Below are positions 1 to 10,996 of a DNA stretch of 10,996 nt, piece by piece. Under the pieces are notes generated by a model, which had not been told where the DNA came from, made no database searches, and saw only the letters and a program-made list of their open reading frames with translations. The DNA is from DAOVGU01 sp030637775 [NCBI: bacterium] (GTDB lineage Bacteria; Ratteibacteria; UBA8468): assembly GCA_030637775.1 (NCBI GenBank), contig DAOWFY010000114.1, positions 1-10,996 of the forward strand. The letters run 5' to 3'. A program made the translations under genes and the position numbers. Every line of letters begins with the position of its first letter. The stretch's first letter is position 1.

Positions 1-909
1 AAGGCTTTTTCTTTTCTTAAAAAGTATGTAAGACAAAATGATATCGATATTATTCATAGTTATACTCCTCGAAATAATATCTTAAGCGCAGCGGTTGGGA
101 AAATAACGGGTATATCTCTCATTTGGCATGAGAGAAATTTAATATATGGAAAAGAGAAGGATTTAGACCGGAGGTTTTCCTTTCTGCCTGATAGAATAAT
201 CTGTAATTCGCATGCGGTAGCAGAGAGATTTCAAATTCGCGGGAAGATTCCCAAGAAAATAAGGGTCATTTTGAATGGAGTTGACCTGAAAAAATTTCAT
301 CCTCAGATAAGTGGAGATGAAGTAAGGAGAAAGTTTGGGATTGGCGATGATAGGATAATAGTCGGTATGATTGCTAATTTTCATCCGAGAAAAAACCACG
401 AATATTTTATAAGTGCTATGCCAAAGATTATTAAATATTCTCCCGATGTCCTATTTGTAATTGCCGGAGGGGAATATTCTGAGGGAGATAGAGTTAGAGA
501 AGAAAAATTAAAAAGGATGATTAAAGAATTGAATTTAAAGAATCGGGTAATTTTCACCGGGTTTAGAGCCGATGTCCCCCCGGTCCTCGCATCTTTCAAC
601 ATTTTTGTTTTAACCTCTGTCTTAGAAGCTTGCAGCCGTGTTCTTCTTGAAGCGATGGCTATGGCTAAGCCTATTGTAGCCTTAGATAGTGGTGGCAATC
701 CAGAATTGATAGAGAATAACCTCTCGGGAATCCTCGTACCCCCGGATAGTCAGGAGAATTTTATAAAGGCGATTGTATCTTTCCTTGTTGATAAGAATAG
801 GAGGGAAGAATTTGGATTTAAGGCAAGAGAACGGGCAGAGAAATTTTTTGATGTGAAACGTAATGCTAAGGAAACAGACACAGTATATCTTGAGTTGGTA
901 GGTCAATAG
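1..909 (+). CDS. GT4-type glycosyltransferase, N-terminus outside window
   Basis: The frame is open from base 1 to the TAG at 907-909, so the gene begins upstream; a TTG at 271 is internal. In-window residues 1-85 are the end of the N-terminal GT-B domain (IIHSYTPRNN, then WHERN, then DRIICNSHAV). The linker VILNGVDLKKF leads into the C-terminal nucleotide-sugar domain (GMIANFHPRKNHEYF, VIAGGEYSEG). The donor-site E-x7-E motif is present as EACSRVLLE, followed by AMAMAKPIVA and SGGNPELI. Family knowledge: such enzymes transfer a sugar from a nucleotide donor with retention of configuration, usually to a lipid-linked glycan on the cytoplasmic face of the membrane. About 70-90 N-terminal residues are probably missing. 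The next gene starts 17 nt downstream. Donor and acceptor cannot be read from the sequence. Confidence 0.93.
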   Translation, partial: KAFSFLKKYVRQNDIDIIHSYTPRNNILSAAVGKITGISLIWHERNLIYGKEKDLDRRFSFLPDRIICNSHAVAERFQIRGKIPKKIRVILNGVDLKKFHPQISGDEVRRKFGIGDDRIIVGMIANFHPRKNHEYFISAMPKIIKYSPDVLFVIAGGEYSEGDRVREEKLKRMIKELNLKNRVIFTGFRADVPPVLASFNIFVLTSVLEACSRVLLEAMAMAKPIVALDSGGNPELIENNLSGILVPPDSQENFIKAIVSFLVDKNRREEFGFKARERAEKFFDVKRNAKETDTVYLELVGQ

Positions 910-926
910 AGAAAAAGGAGAAATAT

Positions 927-2057
927 TTGAAAATTGGGATTGATGCTCGGGAGATTCAAAACGGAGTTTATACAGGTATTGGCAGGTCGTTAGCAAATTT
1001 TTTAGAATATTTTTCAATGTTAAATAAGGATGACGAATGCATTCTCTTTTCCAGCAAGAAGATACCTTTAGATTTTGGTAGAAAGGTCAAGAATATAGTC
1101 ATCGAAGAAGGACTAACATTTTATTGGGACCAGGTAAAGCTTCCATTGGCTATGAGAAGAGAAAGAGTAGATATATTCTATTCGCCTTATTACAAAGTTC
1201 CGTTATTAACCTTCTGTAAAGTAGTCAGCGCTATCTTAGATTTGATGTACTTATCCTTTAAAGAATATAGAAAGAAATTAGGTATTAAGGCAAAGTTATA
1301 TTATATGAGCTTTGGTAAGGGTTTTGCTCATAAGGCTGATAGGATAATCACCGACTCTGAACATGCCAAAAAAGAGATAGTTAAATTTTATAAAATTGCT
1401 GAAGATAGAATAAAAATTATCCCTTTAAGTGTAAACAAAGTATACAATCTCGTAGAGGATAAAATTAAGATAGAAGAGACCAAGGAAAAATACGGTATCA
1501 ATAAGAGATATATCTTGTTTGTCGGTAACTTTAAACCCCATAAAAATGTAAAAACTTTAATTTTGGCCTTTAAAGAAATTACGAACATTCTGCCGGATCT
1601 GGAACTTGTCCTTGTCGGTCCGAAGAAAAATAGTTATCAAGAATTAAAAACTTTAGGAGAGGATTTATCCCTGCAGGATAAAGTCATATTTACTGGTAAG
1701 ATTACCAACTTGTTCGAACTAAAGAATTTATATGATGGAGCTGAACTATTTGTCATGCCATCATTATATGAAGGGTTTGGTTTGCCGGTTGCTGAGGCGA
1801 TGGCTTGCGGACTGCCGGTAGTTGCTTCTGACCGTACTTCCATTCCAGAAGTTGTAGGTAATGCTGGGATTTTGGTTAATCCCTCAGATAATAAAGCATT
1901 TGTTACTACCATATTAAATCTATTGCAGGACCAGCAGATGCGCCTCGAGTTAAGTAAGAGAAGCAAAGAGCAGGCGAATCTATTTTCCGAAGATAGGATT
2001 AATAAGGCAATCTATGATTTATTTCAAGAGGTCTATCACCATGAGATGAAGTTATAG
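927..2057 (+). CDS. GT4-type glycosyltransferase, TTG start
   Basis: A 376-residue GT-B glycosyltransferase of normal length. The TTG at 927 is chosen because AAAAAGGAG lies at 912-920, six bases upstream, and the protein then begins with the typical first strand and glycine loop KIGIDAREIQNGVYTGIGRS. The N-terminal acceptor domain spans about residues 1-170 (DRIITDSEHAKKEI at 138-151). The C-terminal donor domain starts near ILFVGNFKPHKNV (196-208). The E-x7-E motif is EGFGLPVAE, with E282 and E290, followed by ACGLPVVASD and IPEVVGNAG. The EGFGLPVAE form and IPEVVG motif are common in mannosyl- or rhamnosyltransferase-like GT4 enzymes of O-antigen clusters, but the sugar is not proven. It lies 17 nt after the preceding glycosyltransferase and 14 nt before the next, so the three are probably cotranscribed. 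Confidence 0.95.
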   Translation: MKIGIDAREIQNGVYTGIGRSLANFLEYFSMLNKDDECILFSSKKIPLDFGRKVKNIVIEEGLTFYWDQVKLPLAMRRERVDIFYSPYYKVPLLTFCKVVSAILDLMYLSFKEYRKKLGIKAKLYYMSFGKGFAHKADRIITDSEHAKKEIVKFYKIAEDRIKIIPLSVNKVYNLVEDKIKIEETKEKYGINKRYILFVGNFKPHKNVKTLILAFKEITNILPDLELVLVGPKKNSYQELKTLGEDLSLQDKVIFTGKITNLFELKNLYDGAELFVMPSLYEGFGLPVAEAMACGLPVVASDRTSIPEVVGNAGILVNPSDNKAFVTTILNLLQDQQMRLELSKRSKEQANLFSEDRINKAIYDLFQEVYHHEMKL

Positions 2058-2071
2058 AGGCAGCGGATACT

Positions 2072-3232
2072 ATGTTATATAAACTTCCTGAATTTAGCAA
2101 ATCTTTATTTATTGTTAATGATTTTCCCCCAATACTCGGGGGACAATCTACCTACTTCTATAACTTATGGAGGCATCTACCTAGCGAAAAAATTGTAGTA
2201 TTGGCTCCTGTAGTTAATGGTTACAAGGAATTTGATAAAAAGCAAAATTTTGAAATCATCAGGAAAAAATATCTTTTTAATATTCCTTTATTTGGATGGA
2301 TACTCAAGATTACTATTCCCTTACTCCTTTCTTTAATCTTAATTCCAAAAAGAAAGTTAAGTATTATTCACTGTGCCCATATTTTGTCGACCGGTATAGT
2401 TGGATTAATTCTAAAATTTAGTTTTAAAAAACCGTATATTGTTTATACATTCGCTGCAGATATCTTAGGATTTCAAAAATATAAGTTAATAGACAAATTA
2501 ATGCTGATTACCTTAAAAAACGCATATAAAATTATAAGTATAAGCGATTTTACAAAAGGTAAACTTATAGAGAGAGGCATTGAATCTGAAAAAATTATAA
2601 AAATCCTCCCGAGTATTGATTTGGACAAATTTGTTCCTAATGTTAACTCAAAGGAGATAATAAGGAAATATAATCTCCAGAATAAAAAGGTGATTTTAAC
2701 AATAGCACGATTAGTAAAAAGGAAGGGACATGATTTTGTAATTAGAGCTCTTCCGAAAGTATTAGAAAAAGTGCCAAATGCAACTTATTTAATAGTCGGT
2801 GATGGTCCATACTTAAATGAATTGAGAAAATTAGTTAAAGATTTAAAATTAAAGGAAGAAGTAATTTTTGCTGGAAGTGTACCGAATGAAAAGACGATAG
2901 AATATTATAATGCTTGTGATATTTTTATTATGGCAAATAGAGAGATTAAAAGGGAAGGAGATATAGAAGGTTTTGGAATAGTTTTCTTGGAAGCAAATGC
3001 CTGCGGAAAACCAGTCATTGGAGGTAGATCAGGTGGAACGGTTGAGGCAATAGTTGATGCTGAAACTGGTTTATTGATTGATTCCACAGATACAACCCAA
3101 ATCTCAAATGCTCTTATCAAACTTTTGACCAATTCTGAATATGCCAGGGAATTGGGACGAAAGGGGAGATTAAGGGTCGAAAGAGAGTTTACCTGGCAAA
3201 GAAGTATAAATATTTTAAAAAAATTTATATGA
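2072..3232 (+). CDS. GT4-type glycosyltransferase, PimB-like
   Basis: A 386-residue GT-B enzyme. The N-terminal domain opens with FIVNDFPPILGGQSTY (13-28), whose GG forms the phosphate-binding loop. A hydrophobic stretch at about 71-92 (IPLFGWILKI, then TIPLLLSLILIP) may give peripheral membrane contact. The donor domain begins near VILTIARLVKRKGHDF (207-222), with YLIVGDGPYLNEL at 239-251. The E-x7-E motif is EGFGIVFLE (E299, E307), followed by CGKPVIGGRSGG and ETGLLID. The signature EGFGIVFLEANACGKPVIGG resembles PimB-type mannosyltransferases, which suggests but does not prove a GDP-mannose donor. The ATG at 2072 has AGAGG at 2056-2060 as a somewhat distant ribosome binding site. It is strongly AT-rich (28-30% G+C in two sampled 60-nt lines). 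Its TGA overlaps an ATG in an ATGA (3229-3232). Confidence 0.95.
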   Translation: MLYKLPEFSKSLFIVNDFPPILGGQSTYFYNLWRHLPSEKIVVLAPVVNGYKEFDKKQNFEIIRKKYLFNIPLFGWILKITIPLLLSLILIPKRKLSIIHCAHILSTGIVGLILKFSFKKPYIVYTFAADILGFQKYKLIDKLMLITLKNAYKIISISDFTKGKLIERGIESEKIIKILPSIDLDKFVPNVNSKEIIRKYNLQNKKVILTIARLVKRKGHDFVIRALPKVLEKVPNATYLIVGDGPYLNELRKLVKDLKLKEEVIFAGSVPNEKTIEYYNACDIFIMANREIKREGDIEGFGIVFLEANACGKPVIGGRSGGTVEAIVDAETGLLIDSTDTTQISNALIKLLTNSEYARELGRKGRLRVEREFTWQRSINILKKFI

Positions 3233-3270
3233 AACTAGCAATGATGAAGGTTAAAGTGATTACAGATTAA
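3229..3270 (+). other. 13-codon coupled mini-ORF, possible gene remnant
   Basis: An ATG at 3229 overlaps the TGA of the preceding glycosyltransferase as ATGA, the layout usual for translationally coupled genes. It opens a frame encoding MKLAMMKVKVITD before a TAA at 3268-3270. Two further in-frame ATGs lie at 3241 and 3244. The peptide looks like the first beta-strand of a glycosyltransferase (MKVxxITD), so this may be the head of a lost gene. At 13 residues chance is also reasonable, and it could instead simply carry ribosomes towards the methyltransferase start 19 bases further on. Confidence 0.25.
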
Positions 3271-3289
3271 TCCCACATTTTGAGATTTA

Positions 3290-4150
3290 ATGAAGATAAA
3301 TAGGAAAAATCTCTCCTGTAAAATATGTCAGAGTAAAAGAATTTTAGTATTTATTCAGAAGAAGGGTTATCTGATGTTAAAGTGTAGAAACTGTGGCTTT
3401 ATATTTGCGCCATCCATAAATAAAGAGTATATAGAAAGGGTTGTTGAACATTATGAGAGACGAGACCCATTCCTAAGGGTTGCCAAATCCAGGAAGTTTC
3501 TCTATCAGCGATTTCTATCAGAGATAGATAAAAGATTTGCTAAGAAAATAAGAATTCTTGATGTTGGATGTGGACCTGGTTTCTTCCTATCTTTAGCCAG
3601 GCAAAAGGGATGGGATTGTTATGGAGTTGAAGTAGTTTCTTCACTATGTGAAATGGCGAGGAGAAGATATAAACTTAATAATATTATTAACTCAAGATTT
3701 GAGGATATTGAATTCCCTGATTATTATTTTGATATAATTACCTTGTGGAATGTCTTAGATGAAATTGATGCTTTTAAGGAGGTTATTATTAAAGTAAAAC
3801 GAATGCTGAAAGAGGATGGGTTATTATTTATTAGAACGCCAAATGCAACATTTCATTCCTTCTTTTGCCGCCTTCATAATTTTAATTTAGCGCCCCGGAG
3901 AATATTTATTCTTCATATTCGAAATTTTTCCAAAAAGAGTATCCAGATTCTACTTGGAAAAGTCGGTTTTTCTCAGGTAAGGGTTAGAAATTCTTCTCCC
4001 ACTGCAGGAGACCCTTATGGTGGTAAAAAAGGAGTGAAAATCTATAAGTTTTTTGCCTTCCTAATAGCACAACTTCTATTTATCTTAAGTTTTGGTAGAG
4101 TAACCCTTGCTCCATCAATCGAGGTATTTGCTGAAAATGGAAAAAATTAA
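3290..4150 (+). CDS. SAM-dependent methyltransferase with N-terminal Zn-ribbon
   Basis: A 286-residue class I methyltransferase. Residues 10-35 hold two Cys pairs (C10-x2-C13 and C32-x2-C35) in a short zinc-ribbon knuckle ending CRNCGFIFAPS, as in many sugar-cluster methyltransferases. The Rossmann domain follows: SAM motif I is ILDVGCGPGFF (89-99), the acidic strand-2 end is YGVEVV (111-116), and the post-motif region is FDIITLWNVLDEID (147-160). Relatives usually have a VLEH-type sequence where this reads VLDEI. A hydrophobic segment near the C-terminus (about 252-269) could touch the membrane. Its neighbours imply methylation of a glycan or sugar intermediate; O-, C- or N-methylation cannot be told. 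No strong ribosome binding site precedes the ATG at 3290. The 3' end overlaps the next gene by 14 nt. Confidence 0.88.
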   Translation: MKINRKNLSCKICQSKRILVFIQKKGYLMLKCRNCGFIFAPSINKEYIERVVEHYERRDPFLRVAKSRKFLYQRFLSEIDKRFAKKIRILDVGCGPGFFLSLARQKGWDCYGVEVVSSLCEMARRRYKLNNIINSRFEDIEFPDYYFDIITLWNVLDEIDAFKEVIIKVKRMLKEDGLLFIRTPNATFHSFFCRLHNFNLAPRRIFILHIRNFSKKSIQILLGKVGFSQVRVRNSSPTAGDPYGGKKGVKIYKFFAFLIAQLLFILSFGRVTLAPSIEVFAENGKN

Positions 4151-5333
4151 GGTCATCCATATCATTACCAGATTGGATAAGGGAGGGGCGGCAGAGAATA
4201 CCCTTTTGACGGTAAAGGGACTAAATGGAGATAGGTATGAGGCTAAAATTATTGCTGGCTGTTTCCGCAGAGATAAAGAGGATTTAAAGGTTGCGAATAC
4301 AAAAATTGAGGTAATTCTTATTCCTGAGATGAGAAGGGTGATTAATCCTTTTCTTGACATTTTAACATTCTTCAAACTATACCTGATGATAAAAAGAGAA
4401 AGACCCCAGATTGTTCATACCCATACCTCAAAGGCCGGATTTTTGGGTCGCTGGGCAGCAAAACTTGCCGATGTCCCGATCATTATCCATACCCCTCATG
4501 GTCATATCTTTTATGGCTATTTTCATTGGCTTATTACAAGATTTTTTATCTTTTTAGAGAGGATAACCAGCTTAATTACCGACTACATTGTCACCTTAAC
4601 CAAAAGGGGGAGAAAGGAACATCTCAGATATAGGATTGGACCTCCCTGCAAATTTATCCCAATTCATAGCGGGATTGAAAGAAAAAGATTTGAAGAAATA
4701 AGAGCCAATCGAGAAGAGAAAAAAAGGGAATTGGGGATCCCTTTAGAGGCAAAGGTGCTGGGAACAATTGGGAGATTGGAACCAATCAAGGGGCATCTCT
4801 ATCTCTTAAAGGCAGCAAAATTGATTGTGGAGAACCCTCGGTTTCAAGAAACAAGATTCTTATTGGTAGGGAGGGGACCTTTAAGAAAAAAATTAGAAAG
4901 AGAGATATCTCTCTTAGGCATCAGGAAGAATGTTCAATTCTTAGGATTCAGGGAGGATATTTCTGAGATTCTAAATATCTTTGATATCTTTGTTCTCCCT
5001 TCCTTGAATGAAGGAATGGGTAGGGTTTTACTGGAGGCGATGCTGATGGGGAAGCCTGTTGTCGCCAGTAATGTCGGCGGTATCCCTGATATTGTTAAAG
5101 ATGAAGAGACAGGTCTCCTTGTTCCTTGCAAGGATTTTAAAGCTTTATCTGAAAGAATTATTGAATTATTGAAGAACCCGGAGAAGGCAAAATTCCTGGG
5201 AAGAAAAGGGAAAGAAAAAGCAGAGGGGGAGGAATTTACGGCTGCTATAATGGTAAAAAGAATTGAGGAATTATATGAAAGGGCAATTAATGAAAAAATT
5301 TCTTCCGGTAACTTTTGTAATTCTATTACTTAG
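4137..5333 (+). CDS. GT4-type glycosyltransferase
   Basis: A 398-residue GT-B enzyme. I place the start at the ATG at 4137, 14 nt inside the methyltransferase gene, because it gives the canonical start MEKIKVIHIITRLDKGGAAE. An upstream in-frame TTG at 4107 would add a non-conserved extension. The glycine loop is KGGAAEN (15-21) and the acceptor domain includes HTHTSKAG and HTPHGHIFYG (94-127). The linker IPIHSGIERKRF leads to the donor domain LGTIGRLEPIKGH (208-220) and FLLVGRGPL. The E-x7-E motif is EGMGRVLLE (E292, E300), followed by GKPVVASNVGGIPDIV. The close match of its N-terminus to the usual family pattern (HIITRLDxGGAxENTL) makes the family call firm. Its last 44 nt overlap the start of the PHP gene. 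A lipid-linked acceptor is likely, but the sugar is unknown. Confidence 0.94.
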   Translation: MEKIKVIHIITRLDKGGAAENTLLTVKGLNGDRYEAKIIAGCFRRDKEDLKVANTKIEVILIPEMRRVINPFLDILTFFKLYLMIKRERPQIVHTHTSKAGFLGRWAAKLADVPIIIHTPHGHIFYGYFHWLITRFFIFLERITSLITDYIVTLTKRGRKEHLRYRIGPPCKFIPIHSGIERKRFEEIRANREEKKRELGIPLEAKVLGTIGRLEPIKGHLYLLKAAKLIVENPRFQETRFLLVGRGPLRKKLEREISLLGIRKNVQFLGFREDISEILNIFDIFVLPSLNEGMGRVLLEAMLMGKPVVASNVGGIPDIVKDEETGLLVPCKDFKALSERIIELLKNPEKAKFLGRKGKEKAEGEEFTAAIMVKRIEELYERAINEKISSGNFCNSIT

Positions 5334-6753
5334 TATTTCTTCAACTGGCAGGAGCCAGGAAGGACTAAGATATATTCCTGGAGTTATTCATCTCCATAGT
5401 AATGTTAGCACCGGTATCTATTCCATTAAGGAACTTGCTCAACTTGCTCAAGCCAAAGATATTCCTATTATAATTATTACCGATCATCTCTTATTGAAAG
5501 CCGAATATGGCCTTCCACCCCTCCAGAGAATAATAAAGAAAAGGGTAGAAAAAGGTTCTATCCTTCGTTCGGGAGTAAAAGAGTATTTAAGTCAGATTGA
5601 AGAGGTAGATAAGAGTTATCCTTCCTTATCAATTATTCCCGGGGCTGAGGTTGCTCCTTTCTATTTCTGGACAGGTAACTACTTCAGAAAGGACTTGACT
5701 CTCCGTAATTTGCATAAGCAGCTCTTGGTGATTGGATTGGATAAGGGCGATGACTACCTTAGAATGCCTGTTGTTGGCAATTACCATTTTTCTCTCTCAT
5801 GGGAGAATCTCCTTCGGTTATGGCCCTTGGTGCTCATTCTTCTTGGGCTCTGGATGATAAAAAGAAGGAGAAAAAGCAAATTCTGGTTTAGAACACAGAG
5901 CTTTATTCTCTCCTCCCATCCTTACCGAAGATTGGGAATAGTCCTTTTTCTCTTAGGGCTACTATTTCTCTTCAATGAACTTCCCTATTTCCCTTATGAC
6001 CAATACCATGGAGATAGAGATAATCTGCCCTATCAGGATTTGATTGATTATGTTAATGAGAGAAATGGTTTGACCTTCTGGTCAGCACCTGAGGCACCAA
6101 GTCAGCAAAAGCTCAGAGGTATCACCCTTTCCACTCTTCCCTATCCCGAAGCACTTCTCCAGACCAAAGATTATACCGGCTTTGCCTCTCTCTATGAGGG
6201 TTATAGAGAGGTAGGGGGTCCGGGAGGCATCTGGGATAGGGTTTTAATTGAATACTGCCAGGGAAAAAGGGATAAACCGGTCTGGACGATTGGGGAAGTA
6301 GACTATCATTGTCCTCTTGAGCGCAAAGAAATTGATGAGGTCCAGACCGTCTTTCTTTTATCCAAAATTGACGAAAACTCTATTATAGCCGCTTTAAGGA
6401 AAGGGAGATGCTATGTCCTTCGGAGAGCAAAGGAATATAAATTGGTTCTTGAAAATTTTACTCTTTCTATCTCCGGTGGTAAAATAAAACTAATGGGGGA
6501 TACCTTAATCACAGAAGAACTCCCCCGGATTAATTTTGCTCTTTCCAGTTCCGATGGAAAGAGAAGAAAAGTGAGGGTAAAATTGATTCGCTCCGGAAGG
6601 ATCATCAGGGAATTTGTCGGTCTTACGCCAATGAAGAGAAAATTTTACGATTATTCCCTGCCCGAAGGAGAGAAAGGTTACTACCGACTGGATGTTGAAA
6701 CCCAATATTCCCATAAGATCCTTACCAATCCGATATTTGTGAGAAGGAAATAG
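5290..6753 (+). CDS. Exported PHP-type metallohydrolase (CehA/McbA-like) with internal TM hairpin
   Basis: A 487-residue protein. The ATG at 5290 is preferred over in-frame TTG 5263 and ATG 5275 because AAAGGG lies six bases upstream and the product starts with a clean signal sequence (MKKF, then hydrophobic to about 16, STGRSQ after). PHP motifs follow: HLH (H34, H36), TDH (D65, H66), PGAE (E120) and a late DYH (D338, H340). Two hydrophobic segments, about 176-190 and 215-233, flank the basic loop KRRRKSK. By the positive-inside rule that loop is cytoplasmic, with both PHP halves outside. Where an HP histidine is expected the sequence reads FWSAPEA (263-269), so one ligand may be lost. The C-terminal beta-rich region ends YYRLDV...TNPIFV, as in CehA/McbA-family hydrolases. 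The substrate is unknown; phosphate or phosphodiester groups on exported glycans are an inference. Confidence 0.8.
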   Translation: MKKFLPVTFVILLLSISSTGRSQEGLRYIPGVIHLHSNVSTGIYSIKELAQLAQAKDIPIIIITDHLLLKAEYGLPPLQRIIKKRVEKGSILRSGVKEYLSQIEEVDKSYPSLSIIPGAEVAPFYFWTGNYFRKDLTLRNLHKQLLVIGLDKGDDYLRMPVVGNYHFSLSWENLLRLWPLVLILLGLWMIKRRRKSKFWFRTQSFILSSHPYRRLGIVLFLLGLLFLFNELPYFPYDQYHGDRDNLPYQDLIDYVNERNGLTFWSAPEAPSQQKLRGITLSTLPYPEALLQTKDYTGFASLYEGYREVGGPGGIWDRVLIEYCQGKRDKPVWTIGEVDYHCPLERKEIDEVQTVFLLSKIDENSIIAALRKGRCYVLRRAKEYKLVLENFTLSISGGKIKLMGDTLITEELPRINFALSSSDGKRRKVRVKLIRSGRIIREFVGLTPMKRKFYDYSLPEGEKGYYRLDVETQYSHKILTNPIFVRRK

Positions 6754-6798
6754 GTAGTGGTCAACCTTGGTTGACAGCCGAGTGAACTCGGCAACTAC
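6754..6798 (+). repeat. REP-like palindromic element, three-way junction
   Basis: The intergenic sequence after the PHP gene holds nested palindromes: outer arms GTAGT (6754-6758) and ACTAC (6794-6798), then hairpin one GTCAAC-CTTG-GTTGAC (6760-6775) and hairpin two GCCGAG-TGAA-CTCGGC (6777-6792). Together they can fold as a three-way junction in single-stranded DNA or RNA. No T-run follows, so it is not a standard intrinsic terminator, though it could protect or pause the transcript. The form suggests an interspersed, transposase-mobilised repeat, but only one copy is in this window. Confidence 0.7.
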
Positions 6799-6828
6799 AG
6801 AAAACAAAATGGCTTTATAAAGGTTTAG

Positions 6829-7527
6829 ATGATCTGCGCTATTCATCAACCTCAGTTTCTGCCTTGGCTGGGATACTTCGATAAGATCGATAAGAGCGAT
6901 ATCTTTGTTTTTCTGGATAATGTCCAGTATAAGAAGAATGAATGGCAAAATCGCAATAGAATCAAAATTGCTCATGGCTGGCAATGGCTGACGATTCCGG
7001 TAAAATACAGATTTGGACAAAGGATCAATGAAATTCTCATTGATTATAGCAAAGACTGGAGACCAAAGCATTGGCAGGCGCTGATTACAAATTATCAAAA
7101 GAGCCCCTACTTTAAAGATTACCGGGATTTCTTTCAGAAGGTTTATCAACAGAACTGGCGCTATTTAGCCGAGATCAATATTTATTTAATTAGGAAATTA
7201 ATGAAATTTTTAGGAATAGAAAAGGAGATGAAGAAGGCCTCCGATTTAGGAATCAAAGGTGAGAAGACAATAAGACTTGTCGAAATCTGCAAAGTTTTAG
7301 GAGCAGATACCTATCTTTCTGGTCAGGGAGCGAAGGATTACCTTGATTTAGAAAAGTTTAAAAGAGCAAAGATAGAGGTCATTTTTCAGGAGTTTGCTCA
7401 TCCAATATATCGGCAGAACTACCAGGGTTTTGAACCCAATCTTTCGATCATTGATCTTCTCTTTAATGAAGGGAAGAAAAGCCTCAGCCTGCTCCGAGGC
7501 AGAGCAAAGAAAGATAAAAATGTATGA
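6829..7527 (+). CDS. WbqC-family protein
   Basis: A 232-residue protein of the WbqC-like family, of the usual length. The N-terminus MICAIHQPQFLPWLGYFDKI carries the family hallmark HQPxFxPWxGY, and residues 30-45 (DNVQYKKNEWQNRNRI) match the second conserved block. Further blocks are WLTIPV (53-58) and the later TYLSGQGAKDYLD. The ATG at 6829 has AAAGG five bases upstream (6819-6823). Members occur in O-antigen and exopolysaccharide clusters, often beside amino-sugar genes. Their chemistry is poorly defined, and modification of an amino sugar or an acyl-type transfer is only inferred. Here it leads a tight four-gene unit and overlaps the next gene by 8 nt. It is separated from the genes to the left by the palindromic element, so this may be a distinct transcription unit, although I see no convincing promoter. 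Confidence 0.92.
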   Translation: MICAIHQPQFLPWLGYFDKIDKSDIFVFLDNVQYKKNEWQNRNRIKIAHGWQWLTIPVKYRFGQRINEILIDYSKDWRPKHWQALITNYQKSPYFKDYRDFFQKVYQQNWRYLAEINIYLIRKLMKFLGIEKEMKKASDLGIKGEKTIRLVEICKVLGADTYLSGQGAKDYLDLEKFKRAKIEVIFQEFAHPIYRQNYQGFEPNLSIIDLLFNEGKKSLSLLRGRAKKDKNV

Positions 7528-8314
7528 AGAGTATTGGGGCTTAAAGGAAAAGCCATTTGAGAATACCCCTGATCCCCGCTTTCTTTACAGATCTATCCAG
7601 CATAAGGAGGCGCTCTCAAGGCTGTTCTATGTGGTGAGGGAAGGCAAGGGAGCAGGGATGTTAACCGGGATCTTCGGCTGCGGGAAGACCGTATTGGGTC
7701 ATGCTCTCCTTAAAGAATTAGAGAGTGATATCTACAAGCTTGGCTTTGTCACCAATCCCCGACTTGAAGCTGTAGAACTATTGAGGATGATTATTCATTC
7801 CTTGGGGAGAGAGGAATTGCCAACAAGGAAGACCGAGGTTTTAGTTGCTCTTAATGAACTTCTGGTTAACAATCTCCGGGATGGAAAGAAGACCGTGATC
7901 ATCATTGATGAAGCCCATAGCATCGAGGAGAAGGAAGTTTTTGAGGAGATCAGACTCCTTCTTAATTACCAGTTAGAGGATAAGTTTCTCTTAACGCTTC
8001 TTCTTCTCGGTCAGCCGGAACTGAAAGAGAAAATAGAGAATAATAAACAGCTTCTTCAGAGGATAGCGATGAGATATAATTTAGAGGCTTTAAGTTTAAA
8101 GGAGACAGAAAAATATATCTACCATCGTTTAGCCATCGCGGGAAGCGATGGTTCCCGCCTCTTTGATATAAAAAGTCTGAAGAAGATTTACCAACACTCT
8201 GGTGGCATTCCCCGAAGGATCAATCAGATCTGCGACATGAGCCTTCTCATCGGTTTTGACAAAAGGAGCAAAAAAATAAATGAAGGGATTGTTGGGGAGG
8301 CGGTGAGGATATAA
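7520..8314 (+). CDS. ExeA-type AAA+ ATPase
   Basis: A 264-residue P-loop ATPase. The ATG at 7520 gives the family start MYEEYWGLKEKPFENTPDP; the longer frame back to 7394 only reads the WbqC gene in another phase. Walker A is GIFGCGKT (50-57), Walker B VIIIDEAH (126-133), sensor 1 LLLGQPEL (161-168), followed by QRIAMRYNLEAL (180-191) and the sensor 2 region GGIPRRIN (228-235). It has only the ATPase module: no peptidoglycan-binding or SPOR domain follows, unlike full-length ExeA. Family knowledge: relatives act in type II secretion assembly (ExeA) and in exosortase-associated polysaccharide loci, probably as a cytoplasmic energy or assembly factor. Its placement between WbqC and a deacetylase argues for a glycan-locus role rather than secretion. 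A related AAA+ (IstB/TniB-like) is unlikely given the start motif. Confidence 0.9.
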   Translation: MYEEYWGLKEKPFENTPDPRFLYRSIQHKEALSRLFYVVREGKGAGMLTGIFGCGKTVLGHALLKELESDIYKLGFVTNPRLEAVELLRMIIHSLGREELPTRKTEVLVALNELLVNNLRDGKKTVIIIDEAHSIEEKEVFEEIRLLLNYQLEDKFLLTLLLLGQPELKEKIENNKQLLQRIAMRYNLEALSLKETEKYIYHRLAIAGSDGSRLFDIKSLKKIYQHSGGIPRRINQICDMSLLIGFDKRSKKINEGIVGEAVRI

Positions 8315-8315
8315 A

Positions 8316-8930
8316 ATGAATATTTTAGCCATCGGAGCCCATCCCGATGATATTGAATATGGTTGTGGTGGTCTTCTTCTGAAGGCCGCAGAGAAGGGAA
8401 ATAAAATTTATCTCTTTATTCTTACCAGGGGGGAAAGGGGAGGGGATCCGAAGATAAGGGAAAAGGAGCAGGAAAAGGCCGCCAGACTTCTGGGAGCAGA
8501 AAGGTTGCTCTGGGGAGATTTTTCCGATACGCAACTTCCCGGGACAAATATCCTCATTCCCAAGATCGAAGAGGTTCTTAATCTTGTTAATCCAGAGGAG
8601 GTCTACGTTAACTACTTCGATGATACCCACCAGGACCATCGGGTTCTCTCAGATGCGGCGATCTCGGCAACCAGATATATCAAGAATGTTTTCTTCTATG
8701 AGGACTATACCACGACCAATTTTGAGCCAAATCTCTTTGTGGAGATCGAAGGTACCCTGAACAAGAAGATTGAACTTCTTAAATGTCACCATTCTCAGAT
8801 GACCAGGGTTTATCCCACAGGGCTTGATATCTTAGAAAGTGTCCGAGCAATTGCCAACTTCAGAGGCTTTCAGGGAAAGGTAAAATATGCTGAGGGGTTT
8901 AAGGCGCTTCGGTTTCTGCGAGAAGTATAA
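8316..8930 (+). CDS. PIG-L/LmbE-family zinc deacetylase
   Basis: A 204-residue protein starting one base after the ATPase stop, with GTGAGG (8303-8308) seven bases upstream of its ATG. The N-terminal motif MNILAIGAHPDDIEYGCGG includes AHPDD (8-12), where H9 and D12 bind zinc and D11 is the expected catalytic base. The downstream zinc ligand is in THQDHR (104-109, H108). LTRGERGGD (36-44) is also a family feature. Members hydrolyse N-acetyl groups from amino sugars, as in GlcNAc-PI, GlcNAc-inositol or GlcNAc-malate deacetylases (PIG-L, MshB, BshB). In this setting removal of an N-acetyl group from a nucleotide-linked or lipid-linked amino sugar is the natural inference, perhaps with later re-modification by WbqC. 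A bacillithiol role is possible but has no support nearby. No signal peptide, so cytoplasmic. Confidence 0.93.
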   Translation: MNILAIGAHPDDIEYGCGGLLLKAAEKGNKIYLFILTRGERGGDPKIREKEQEKAARLLGAERLLWGDFSDTQLPGTNILIPKIEEVLNLVNPEEVYVNYFDDTHQDHRVLSDAAISATRYIKNVFFYEDYTTTNFEPNLFVEIEGTLNKKIELLKCHHSQMTRVYPTGLDILESVRAIANFRGFQGKVKYAEGFKALRFLREV

Positions 8931-10028
8931 ATGAGGACTATACCCCATTCCCGCCCCTCTTTAGGAGCTGAGGAGAGAAAAAAGGTTGTTGCTACCTTAA
9001 GATCCGGCCAGATCGCCCAGGGAAGAATTGTCGAAAGGACCGAAAAGGCCTTCGCTGACTTTGTCGGCGTTAAAGGAGCCGTTTTATTCAACTCCGGTAC
9101 CGCCGCCTGTCATCTTGCACTTTTAGCATTAGGAATTAAGAAAAAAGATGAGGTCATTTTACCATCCTATACCTGCTCGGCCTTACTTAATGCTATCTAT
9201 TATACCGGCGCTAAGCCCATTCTCTGCGATGTCCATCGCTCTAACTTTAATCTTGACCCTGCCGAGGCAAGGAAGAGAATCGGTAAGAAAACAAGTGCAA
9301 TCATCATTCCCTATATCTTTGGGGCTCCTGCTAACCTCAAAGAATTGATAGAATTTAAGGTTCCCATTGTTGAGGACATTTCCCATAACATTGGAGCAGA
9401 TTATCAGGGTAGAAGGATCGGAAGTTTTGGAAAGATCTCTATCTGCTCCTTCTATGCGACCAAAATGGTGACCTCGGGAGAAGGAGGGATTGCTCTTTCC
9501 AATGATGAGATTCTTTTGAAAAGGATGAGAGATCTCCGGGACTACGATGAAAAGGAGAATTATCTTTTACGCTATAACTATAAATTGACCGATATCCAGG
9601 CCTCAATCCTTTTGGTTCAATTGAAGAAACTTCCTCTCTTTATTGCCCGGCGAAAAAATTTAGCCTCTGAATATAATGAGGCATTCTCTAGATACAATAT
9701 CAAGTTGCCTTCAGGAAAGGAGCATGTCTTTTATCGCTATGTTGTGCAAATTCCAAAGAACAGGGATCTCGAAAGAATAATCCTTTTATTTCAAAGGAAA
9801 GGAATTATCTGCCGCAGGCCGGTTTATAAACCTCTCCATCGGTATCTCCATCAGGAAGGATTCCCTGTTACAGAAGCAATCTGGCATTCCGCCCTTTCCC
9901 TGCCTCTTTACCCTTCCTTAACGAAAGAAGAATTAAGGAAAGTTGTCTCTGTGGGTCAGAGCATTTTCCCCCAACTGACACGAAGTGTCACCCTGAGCGC
10001 AAAGCGAAGGGTCTCATACTACAGATGA
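8931..10028 (+). CDS. DegT/DnrJ/EryC1-family PLP aminotransferase with repeat-encoded tail
   Basis: A 365-residue fold type I PLP enzyme starting directly after the deacetylase stop (TAAATG). Motifs: PHSRPSLG (5-12), the cofactor phosphate region NSGTAACHLAL (54-64), LPSYTCSALLNA (77-88), IVEDISHNIGA (146-156) with D149 pairing to the pyridine nitrogen, and SFYATKMVTSGEGG (173-186), where K178 forms the Schiff base. YNYKLTDIQASI (215-226) matches the family block YNxRxxDxQAA. The family mostly transaminates keto sugars on nucleotide carriers, usually from glutamate, giving amino sugars for surface glycans. The product sugar cannot be assigned. Residues 349-365, from LTRSVT to the stop, are encoded inside a palindromic repeat and are not expected to be conserved, so the ancestral C-terminus was probably near residue 348. 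All catalytic motifs lie upstream of the tail. Confidence 0.93.
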   Translation: MRTIPHSRPSLGAEERKKVVATLRSGQIAQGRIVERTEKAFADFVGVKGAVLFNSGTAACHLALLALGIKKKDEVILPSYTCSALLNAIYYTGAKPILCDVHRSNFNLDPAEARKRIGKKTSAIIIPYIFGAPANLKELIEFKVPIVEDISHNIGADYQGRRIGSFGKISICSFYATKMVTSGEGGIALSNDEILLKRMRDLRDYDEKENYLLRYNYKLTDIQASILLVQLKKLPLFIARRKNLASEYNEAFSRYNIKLPSGKEHVFYRYVVQIPKNRDLERIILLFQRKGIICRRPVYKPLHRYLHQEGFPVTEAIWHSALSLPLYPSLTKEELRKVVSVGQSIFPQLTRSVTLSAKRRVSYYR

Positions 10029-10132: not shown

Positions 10133-10206
10133 GCGCCCGTAGCTCAGCTGGATAGAGCGGTGGACTTCGAATCCAAAGGTGGCAGGTTCAAATCCTGCCG
10201 GGCGCG
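10133..10206 (+). tRNA. tRNA-Arg (anticodon UCG)
   Basis: A complete cloverleaf of 74 nt. The acceptor strands GCGCCCG (10133-10139) and CGGGCGC (10199-10205) pair perfectly. The D-stem is GCTC/GAGC. The anticodon loop CTTCGAA (10165-10171) has anticodon TCG at 10167-10169, for CGA/CGG arginine codons. The T-stem GCAGG/CCTGC surrounds the T-loop TTCAAAT. The first anticodon-stem pair is a G-A mismatch, the only irregularity. The discriminator is G10206. CCA is not encoded (CT follows), so CCA-adding enzyme is needed. The 3' half overlaps the antisense end of the mfd-like gene. Confidence 0.97.
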
Positions 10207-10996
10207 CTAAGCAACTTTTGGAGAGCCTCAGGAATCGGACCGAAGCGGTCTCTAAGTTCTTGGATGAATGCGGCGGGGATTTCCTCCTTTTTTAAAGAAA
10301 AAAGTTGACGATAAAGACGAAGGCGAAGGGACTCGCTCGGGATATAGGATTCGGGGATATAGCCGTTGGCCGAAGAAAGTACTTTAGGGAAGGGAATTTG
10401 AGGTTTCCCCAGTAACTCTCCTGTTACCTCTTGGAGTAAATCACAATATAGATGAAAACCCACCGCTTCAATAAAGCCGTGTTGCTCCCTTCCTAAGATA
10501 TTACCCGCCCCTCTGATTTCCAGGTCCCGGAGCGCTAATTTAAAACCACTGCCCAGGGTAGAAAATTCCTCAAGCGCTTTTAGCCTCTTTTTTGCCTCAG
10601 AGCCAAGGGTAGCATCCTGTGAAATGAGAAGATAGGCATAGGCTCTCTCTTTGTAACGGCCAACCCGACCGCGCAACTGGTAAAGATCGGCCAAACCAAA
10701 ATTCTCCGCCTCCTCAATAATGATCGTATTGGCATTAGGGATATCGAGGCCCGATTCAATAATGGTTGTCGCTAAAAGAAGGTCAATCTCTCCTTCAATG
10801 AACTTCAGCATCACACTTTCCAATCTTTTCTCCTCCATCTGGCCGTGGGCAATGCCGATTTTGGCCTCAGGAAGTAATCTCTTTAGGCTTATCGCCTTTT
10901 CCTCAATATTGTAGACCCGGTTGTGAAGATAGTAGACTTGGCCGCCCCTTTCCATTTCCCGGAGAACGGCATTTTTAATAAGAGATTCGTTATACT
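10188..10996 (-). CDS. mfd: Transcription-repair coupling factor (Mfd), 3' part, truncated C-terminus
   Basis: The minus-strand frame is open to the window edge; conserved sequence (LREMERGGQVYYLHNRV) continues past the first ATG at 10955, so the gene starts outside. Seen are the RecA-like domain 2 motifs: DLLLATTIIESGLDIPNAN (motif V), LADLYQLRGRVGR (motif VI), then the translocase (TRG) region with LRDLEIRGAGNILGREQHG, as in Mfd. RecG shares the helicase parts but not the following ESYIPSESLRLRLYRQL and RDRFGPIPEALQKLL, which mark the Mfd C-terminal TRCF domain. Mfd is a DNA translocase that displaces stalled RNA polymerase and recruits UvrA. The frame ends six codons after QKLL, so roughly 100 residues of the domain normally following RFGP are missing. 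The TGA at 10188-10190 and the last five or so codons lie antisense to the tRNA-Arg gene. Confidence 0.93.
   Translation of the reverse strand, partial: YNESLIKNAVLREMERGGQVYYLHNRVYNIEEKAISLKRLLPEAKIGIAHGQMEEKRLESVMLKFIEGEIDLLLATTIIESGLDIPNANTIIIEEAENFGLADLYQLRGRVGRYKERAYAYLLISQDATLGSEAKKRLKALEEFSTLGSGFKLALRDLEIRGAGNILGREQHGFIEAVGFHLYCDLLQEVTGELLGKPQIPFPKVLSSANGYIPESYIPSESLRLRLYRQLFSLKKEEIPAAFIQELRDRFGPIPEALQKLLSAPGRI

What the first reader, a model, noticed from the sequence alone, without database searches (positions are those of the whole stretch)
10188..10260. Mfd C-terminal domain breaks off exactly at the 3' end of tRNA-Arg
Conserved Mfd sequence runs to RFGPIPEALQKLL (last LL codons 10209-10214) and then ends. 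The remaining codons S-A-P-G-R-I-stop are just the antisense strand of the tRNA (10188-10208). Homology stops about 3 nt from the tRNA 3' end, the place favoured by tRNA-targeting integrases and a common recombination point. Most of the C-terminal domain (D7), which in E. coli masks the UvrA-binding surface, is therefore missing. If the protein is expressed it may be constitutively open for UvrA, or it may be a decaying gene. A lineage-wide loss of D7 is the main alternative.
Basis: partly seen in the sequence, partly recalled or inferred. Interest (0 to 1): 0.62.

Follow-up and report, generated by a model that had tools for sequence, protein, structure and literature searches.

The report
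Phylum-wide shortened Mfd repair protein
The DNA-repair motor protein Mfd really does end right beside a tRNA gene here, but its relatives end at the same place and mostly have no tRNA there, so this is an old, inherited shortening that keeps the residues of the protein's self-locking clamp, and not a gene broken by the tRNA.

Summary
In detail: mfd (10188-10994, - strand) loses homology after ...FGPIPEALQKLL (10209-10214); its last six codons and stop are antisense to tRNA-Arg(TCG) (10133-10207). "Broken at the tRNA" is wrong. In the window's phylum (35 genomes) 31 of 31 readable Mfd ends stop at about the same point with an in-frame stop, 5 of them with a tRNA within 600 nt. Outside it, 56 of 59 named loci run 80-145 residues further. 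The tRNA contact is recent: relative to family member G002, 47 nt holding the mfd stop are missing. The gene is under purifying selection (dN/dS 0.05-0.16). Only the distal half of D7 is gone; the D7 clamp motif (E. coli E1045/D1048/R1049/F1050) and its D2 partners R165/R181 are kept, so "constitutively open for UvrA" is not supported. Extra finding: the aromatic at E. coli F185, on the UvrA-docking face, is lost in 26 of 27 phylum Mfds and, at the equivalent site, in 24 of 26 phylum UvrBs, suggesting that the UvrA dock was remodelled for both partners.

The parts
10188..10994 (-). mfd (transcription-repair coupling factor), 3' 268 codons plus stop; 5' part lies off the contig
10206..10367 (-). 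retained N-terminal half of domain D7 (TRCF profile positions 4-57 of 95); three helices in the model of the G001 orthologue
10239..10259 (-). E-L-R-D-R-F-G clamp motif, aligned to E. coli E1045-G1051
10209..10214 (-). last homologous codons (Leu-Leu)
10188..10208 (-). six non-homologous codons S-A-P-G-R-I and stop, read from the antisense strand of the tRNA (10208 is one base beyond it)
10133..10207 (+). tRNA-Arg(TCG), convergent with mfd and overlapping it by 20 nt (10188-10207)
10207..10209 (+). CTA where the family members G002 and G003 encode CCA at the tRNA 3' end

Best explanation
This is a working Mfd of an unnamed candidate phylum whose common ancestor lost the C-terminal half of domain D7 (everything after about E. 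coli residue 1066). What remains of D7 is three helices that carry the E/D/R/F clamp motif. Inferred: this mini-D7 still folds onto D2, holds the motor closed and covers R165/R181 until Mfd meets a stalled RNA polymerase, as in E. coli; the lost half is then dispensable for the clamp. The contact with tRNA-Arg is a later local event: in the window's genus the spacer between mfd and a convergent tRNA-Arg was deleted (47 nt relative to G002, taking the mfd stop), so mfd now ends with six codons and a stop read from the antisense strand of the tRNA. Shown: phylum-wide end point, residue conservation, spacer difference, purifying selection. Inferred: that the clamp works.
For: TRCF profile over the phylum: 31 of 35 genomes match, 30 stop at profile 52-61, and G023 is listed to 70 but across two stops. 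Direct reading: 31 of 31 ends have an in-frame stop 0-11 aa past the alignment. Outgroups: 24 of 26 genomes match and all 24 reach profile 77-94, G046 in two pieces; 56 of 59 other named loci have 80-145 aa more (two cut by the contig; L079 stops earlier still). Residues past E. coli 1056: 5-15 in 28 phylum Mfds, 85-149 in 47 others. The 29 phylum Mfds in the tree form one clade, support 1.0. Clamp: D1048 28 of 28, F1050 28 of 28, R1049 25 R + 3 K of 28, E1045 23 of 28 (25 with D); D2 R165 27 of 27 and R181 27 of 27. D2-D7 contact and its autoinhibitory role: PMC3025350 and PMC7385628, passages. AlphaFold2 model of the G001 Mfd (mean pLDDT 79.9, pTM 0.56): half-D7 is helices 970-982, 985-999 and 1004-1014, pLDDT 73-85. 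Whole-chain TM-scores are 0.69-0.78 to closed Mfds (6ac8, 6ac6, 6acx, 2eyq, 6aca, 6x26) and 0.39-0.47 to rearranged ones (6x2f, 9n11, 6xeo); 6x26, where D7 still covers D2, aligns over 965 residues up to E. coli 1066 (state from PMC7864632 passages). Spacer. dN/dS. UvrA in 32 of 35 and UvrB in 28 of 35 phylum genomes.
Against: No experiment. The model has pTM 0.56, its alignment held 34 homologues with full D7, and closed Mfd structures are old enough to have been in AlphaFold2's training set, so the closed pose is weak evidence. By Z the order is mixed: the rearranged 9n11 (49.4) and 6x2f (43.5) rank second and third, and 6xeo (31.9) equals 2eyq (31.4). Conserved clamp residues could also serve another contact. 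A detached D7 half elsewhere in the genomes is not excluded: the profile used found only 9 of 24 positive controls. Genomes are drafts (the window's 83.5% complete), and the window's own mfd 5' part is not held, so its D2 residues are inferred from G001-G003.
Confidence: 0.72

Rival explanations
1. Natural derepressed Mfd: without the C-terminal half of D7 the clamp is too weak, so the phylum runs an always-open Mfd that translocates and binds UvrA without RNAP, like E. coli Mfd delta-D7, which still does transcription-coupled repair.
For: Delta-D7 E. coli Mfd is derepressed and still supports strand-specific repair (PMC3025350 passages), so such a lineage could live. The distal half of D7 (82 residues in E. 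coli numbering) is absent in 31 of 31.
Against: The residues whose alanine mutants derepress E. coli Mfd are at least as conserved here as elsewhere (D1048 28 of 28 against 40 of 47; R1049 25 of 28 against 36 of 47; E1045 23 of 28 against 37 of 47), which an abandoned clamp would not need.
Confidence: 0.18
2. Local breakage: integration or recombination at the 3' end of tRNA-Arg cut the window's mfd, leaving a decaying gene.
For: The homology ends within 2 nt of the tRNA 3' end; in G001 only a 3' tRNA remnant abuts mfd and no tRNA is called, the look of an att remnant.
Against: 31 of 31 phylum Mfds end there, 26 of them with no tRNA called within 600 nt (four had less than 600 nt to look at). 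G002 has its own stop right after LL, then 43 nt, then the tRNA. No second close copy of the tRNA-Arg 3' end in G000. dN/dS 0.048-0.157.
Confidence: 0.04
3. Assembly or binning artefact at 10190-10220.
For: Draft metagenome bin, 177 contigs; the contig ends inside mfd.
Against: The same end point in 31 genomes and the same kind of junction in G001.
Confidence: 0.02

Closest known systems
Escherichia coli Mfd (2EYQ, 6X26; 1148 aa)
   Same: UvrB-homology module with D2, RID, two-lobe RecG-like motor, start of D7 with the E1045/D1048/R1049/F1050 motif; structural alignment of the G001 model up to residue 1066
   Different: Ends where E. coli has 82 more residues; 670-706 residues between R165 and D6 in 25 phylum Mfds that cover the stretch whole, against 717-821 in 40 of 47 others and 674-676 in 7; F185 position not aromatic in 26 of 27
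E. coli Mfd delta-D7 and Mfd E1045A/D1048A/R1049A (laboratory mutants, PMC3025350)
   Same: Altered D7
   Different: Here the clamp residues are present and only the distal half of D7 is absent, a combination that the listings and passages I saw did not show
Mfd of genome G157 (L119, another unnamed phylum)
   Same: Also stops 9 aa past the same column
   Different: 692 aa; it begins in D2, so the N-terminal part is missing as well, and the aromatic is kept

Membership tests
Mfd / transcription-repair coupling factor | Passes NCBIfam equivalog TIGR00580 (cut-off 800 bits) | tested here: met
   Orthologues: G001 952.7, G002 965.4, G005 934.4 bits. The window fragment alone scores 371.6 because 5' codons are off the contig.
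Mfd / transcription-repair coupling factor | RNAP-interaction domain (PF02559) and motor lobes (PF00270, PF00271) | tested here: met
   G001 and G005 proteins; the window fragment has PF00271.
Mfd / transcription-repair coupling factor | UvrB-homology / UvrA-docking domain (PF17757) with R165 and R181 | tested here: met
   PF17757 in G001 and G005; R165 27 of 27, R181 27 of 27 phylum Mfds that cover them. Not readable in the window itself.
Mfd / transcription-repair coupling factor | Aromatic at F185 on the UvrA-docking face | tested here: not met
   F in 1 of 27 phylum Mfds against F or W in 46 of 47 others. Common in the family, but the curated models do not require it.
Mfd / transcription-repair coupling factor | Complete D7 / TRCF domain (PF03461, 95 positions) | tested here: not met
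   Matches stop at 52-61 in the phylum, at 77-94 outside. The partial PF03461 match still passes its cut-off in 31 of 31.
Mfd / transcription-repair coupling factor | ATP-driven removal of stalled RNAP and recruitment of UvrA | not testable with these tools
   Biochemistry needed.
tRNA-targeted integrative element | Second copy of the tRNA 3' end and an integrase next to it | tested here: inconclusive
   One exact copy in G000; the other hit (2 mismatches) is a tRNA-Arg(CCT). None of the 10 other window ORFs scanned matched an integrase family. The genome is a draft, and G001 has a 3' tRNA remnant.

The most novel reading that the evidence does not exclude
In one bacterial phylum the UvrA dock was rebuilt for both of its partners: Mfd D2 and UvrB D2 lost the same conserved aromatic on the UvrA-facing surface (26 of 27 and 24 of 26), and the distal half of Mfd's mask D7 was dropped while the clamp residues stayed. 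Mfd would then still recruit UvrA, its surface having followed UvrB's, and a natural minimal D7 shows which part of the domain is the lock.
Probability: 0.35. Interest if true: 0.58.

Novelty: new variant of a known kind. Interest (0 to 1): 0.38.

Why it matters
D7 is treated as one autoinhibitory domain of Mfd (PMC7835731 passages). A phylum that lives with only its first half, while keeping the clamp residues, is a natural deletion series: it predicts that the lock is the helical E-x-x-D-R-F-G part and that the distal half does something else. The joint loss of the F185 aromatic in Mfd and UvrB offers a natural test of how two proteins that share one docking site on UvrA change together. TIGR00580, the curated Mfd model, is 907 positions long and matches here to 889-890, so routine annotation would probably not show the shortening.

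Tried and rejected
Rejected: tRNA-caused truncation, misassembly and decay. Frame error: PF03461 finds no other piece of the domain in G000, and the space after the end is the tRNA itself.

Inconclusive: a detached D7 half. Profile A1 gave three weak phylum hits (G017 0.013, G001 0.022, G020 0.029; 3 of 35 genomes), no better than off-target hits in a control genome (G047 0.026, 0.047), but it found only 9 of 24 control genomes. UvrA pocket: 20 phylum UvrAs were read and one was compared with solved UvrAs; no compensating residue was identified. A first UvrA query used the wrong part of the protein. Survey of other lineages: (291 genomes, 269 match, phylum included) cut its match table at E about 1e-21; the rows it lists are from outside the phylum and reach profile 82 or more. 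re-searched 46 low scorers or non-matchers, 36 of which match: short ends were G157 (truly short), G103 and G248 (cut by the contig) and G194 (continued by a second piece); the rest reach 76-94. Genomes scoring between those two sets were not all read.

Counts and dropped rows: one search used 29 phylum rows (G006, G025 and G034 dropped as fragments; G017, G028 and G030 gave no Mfd place) and 47 others longer than 1000 aa. Outside that set L079 (D) and L084 (S) also lack the aromatic, as does L111 (E) within it. One search used 26 phylum UvrBs (three fragments from G004 and G021 left out) and 29 others (G047 dropped); its printed column labels are off by one, and the row labelled G/D is the F185 equivalent, checked against the printed alignment. 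The phylum rows descend from one ancestor, so the Fisher values are not evidence of many events. In one search dS is 1.2 (G002) and 2.0 (G003), near saturation. ARAGORN had under 600 nt downstream in G001, G010, G022 and G027.

Papers: searches. No title or abstract start in the listings spoke of a natural half-D7 Mfd; the library lacks most subscription papers. Passages only were seen of PMC3025350, PMC7385628, PMC7864632, PMC7672476, PMC7835731 and PMC6320318; PMC10491686 is from a search listing only.

Full report
What is there. The contig is exactly the window (G000:C91, 10,996 bases, from a 1.4-Mb draft genome, 83.5% complete). Its right end holds the last 268 codons of mfd on the minus strand (10188-10994) and, converging on it, tRNA-Arg(TCG) at 10133-10207. 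The last homologous codons are Leu-Leu at 10209-10214. The next six codons and the stop (10208-10188) are antisense to the tRNA, so the CDS and the tRNA overlap by 20 nt.

The end point belongs to the phylum, not to the tRNA. With the TRCF profile (PF03461, 95 positions) 31 of 35 genomes of the phylum match; 30 stop at profile 52-61, and G023 is listed to 70 only by running over two stops. Reading the DNA after the match, 31 of 31 have an in-frame stop 0-11 codons further on. Of 26 genomes outside the phylum 24 match and reach 77-94, G046 in two pieces. Of 59 other named loci 56 have 80-145 residues more, two are cut by the contig, and L079 ends earlier still. A tRNA is called within 600 nt of the mfd end in 5 of 31: tRNA-Arg, convergent, in G000 and G002; tRNA-Ala, same direction, in G004, G006 and G008. 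The 29 phylum Mfds put in a tree form one clade with support 1.0, beside L054 and L105 (Zixibacteria) and L067, so one loss in the common ancestor explains them. The named record of the same genus is "bacterium isolate CSMAG_1143"; the name CSMAG occurs in a cold-seep genome catalogue (PMC10491686, seen in a search listing). The phylum's name could not be read with these tools.

How mfd came to touch the tRNA. G002, same family, ends mfd with its own TGA directly after Leu-Leu, then 43 nt, then a tRNA-Arg with encoded CCA. Aligned to it the window lacks 47 nt, among them the stop, and reads CTA in place of CCA. In G001, same genus, mfd also runs into a tRNA 3' end, but only the T-arm and acceptor end remain and no tRNA is called. 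The tRNA contact is thus a genus-level event, later than the loss of half of D7. An integration event at that spot in G001 is possible and unresolved, as its contig begins 289 bases beyond the mfd stop. G000 holds no second close copy of the tRNA-Arg 3' end.

The gene is under selection. dN/dS is 0.157 against G001 and 0.087 against G002 over 261 codons, and 0.048 against G003 over 176 (dS is near saturation for the last two). Orthologues pass the curated Mfd model (952.7, 965.4 and 934.4 bits against 800), and the two scanned hold the UvrB-interaction, RID and motor domains. UvrA is found in 32 of 35 and UvrB in 28 of 35 phylum genomes.

What is lost and what is kept. The alignment with E. 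coli Mfd of a phylum member (G005) and a multiple alignment put E-L-R-D-R-F-G of the window on E1045-G1051 (numbering counted from the printed alignment). In E. coli these D7 residues contact D2, and changing E1045, D1048 and R1049 to alanine frees the motor and exposes the UvrA site; R165 and R181 are their D2 partners (PMC3025350 and PMC7385628, passages). In the phylum D1048 and F1050 are kept in 28 of 28, R1049 as R or K in 28 of 28, E1045 as E in 23 of 28, and R165 and R181 in 27 of 27. R165A alone abolishes UvrA binding in Salmonella (PMC6320318, passages). The AlphaFold2 model of the G001 Mfd shows the remaining D7 as three helices. Over the whole chain it resembles closed Mfds (TM-score 0.69-0.78) more than rearranged ones (0.39-0.47), and it aligns to 6x26 up to E. 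coli residue 1066; by Z the rearranged 9n11 and 6x2f rank second and third, through their motor and N-terminal parts only (aligned to model residue 942 or less). I therefore think, as an inference, that the lock still works with half a domain. That pose is weak evidence: pTM is 0.56, the alignment contained 34 homologues with full D7, and closed Mfd structures were probably in the program's training set.

An unplanned finding. The third docking residue in E. coli, F185, is F or W in 46 of 47 other Mfds but S, L, V, I, T or E in 26 of 27 of the phylum, with F only in G026. The equivalent place in UvrB is aromatic in 28 of 29 genomes outside the phylum and in 2 of 26 inside. UvrB and Mfd use the same kind of domain to meet UvrA, probably the same part of it (PMC3025350 passages), so the simplest reading is that the UvrA pocket changed and both partners followed. 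This favours a Mfd that still docks on UvrA. Against it: I found no compensating UvrA residue, and the changes may descend from one ancestor, so the counts are not independent. L079, L084 and L111 from other groups also lack the aromatic in Mfd.

Scope of novelty. One other genome outside the phylum, G157, also ends 9 residues past the same column, with a 692-residue Mfd, so the shortening has happened at least twice if its assembly is right. I saw no description of a natural half-D7 Mfd in the listings or in the passages read, in a library without most subscription journals. The finding is a variant of a known protein, of moderate interest.

Noticed in passing
L131-L156 (UvrB of the phylum) and L033-L052 (Mfd): Joint loss of the conserved aromatic on the UvrA-docking face in UvrB (24 of 26) and Mfd (26 of 27). 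In UvrB the nearby E-x-F-P position is also I or V in 26 of 26 phylum rows, where 16 of 29 others have F.
   Followed up: partly
L119 (G157:C24:65400-68700): A 692-residue Mfd in another unnamed phylum: begins in D2, has little between D2 and the RID, and also stops 9 aa past the same D7 column.
   Followed up: partly
L033 / L003, 250-310: In the same-genus genome G001 only the T-arm and acceptor 3' end of tRNA-Arg abut mfd; the rest does not look like a tRNA and none is called, as an attachment-site remnant would look.
   Followed up: partly
window 9991-10015: The C-terminus of the DegT-type aminotransferase ORF (8931-10028) runs into CCCTGAGCGCAAAGCGAAGGGTCTC, a palindrome-like stretch that reminds me of dispersed repeats (recalled, not tested genome-wide); one copy in the window, and no match in fetched loci other than those covering this place.
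   Followed up: partly
window 10207-10209: The tRNA-Arg gene has CTA in place of the CCA encoded by G002 and G003, so this tRNA would depend on CCA addition after processing.
   Followed up: no
window 1-10028: Surface-polysaccharide type cluster: four group-1 glycosyltransferases, a methyltransferase, WbqC, a PIG-L deacetylase, a DegT aminotransferase, a PHP-domain protein and an AAA ATPase.
   Followed up: no
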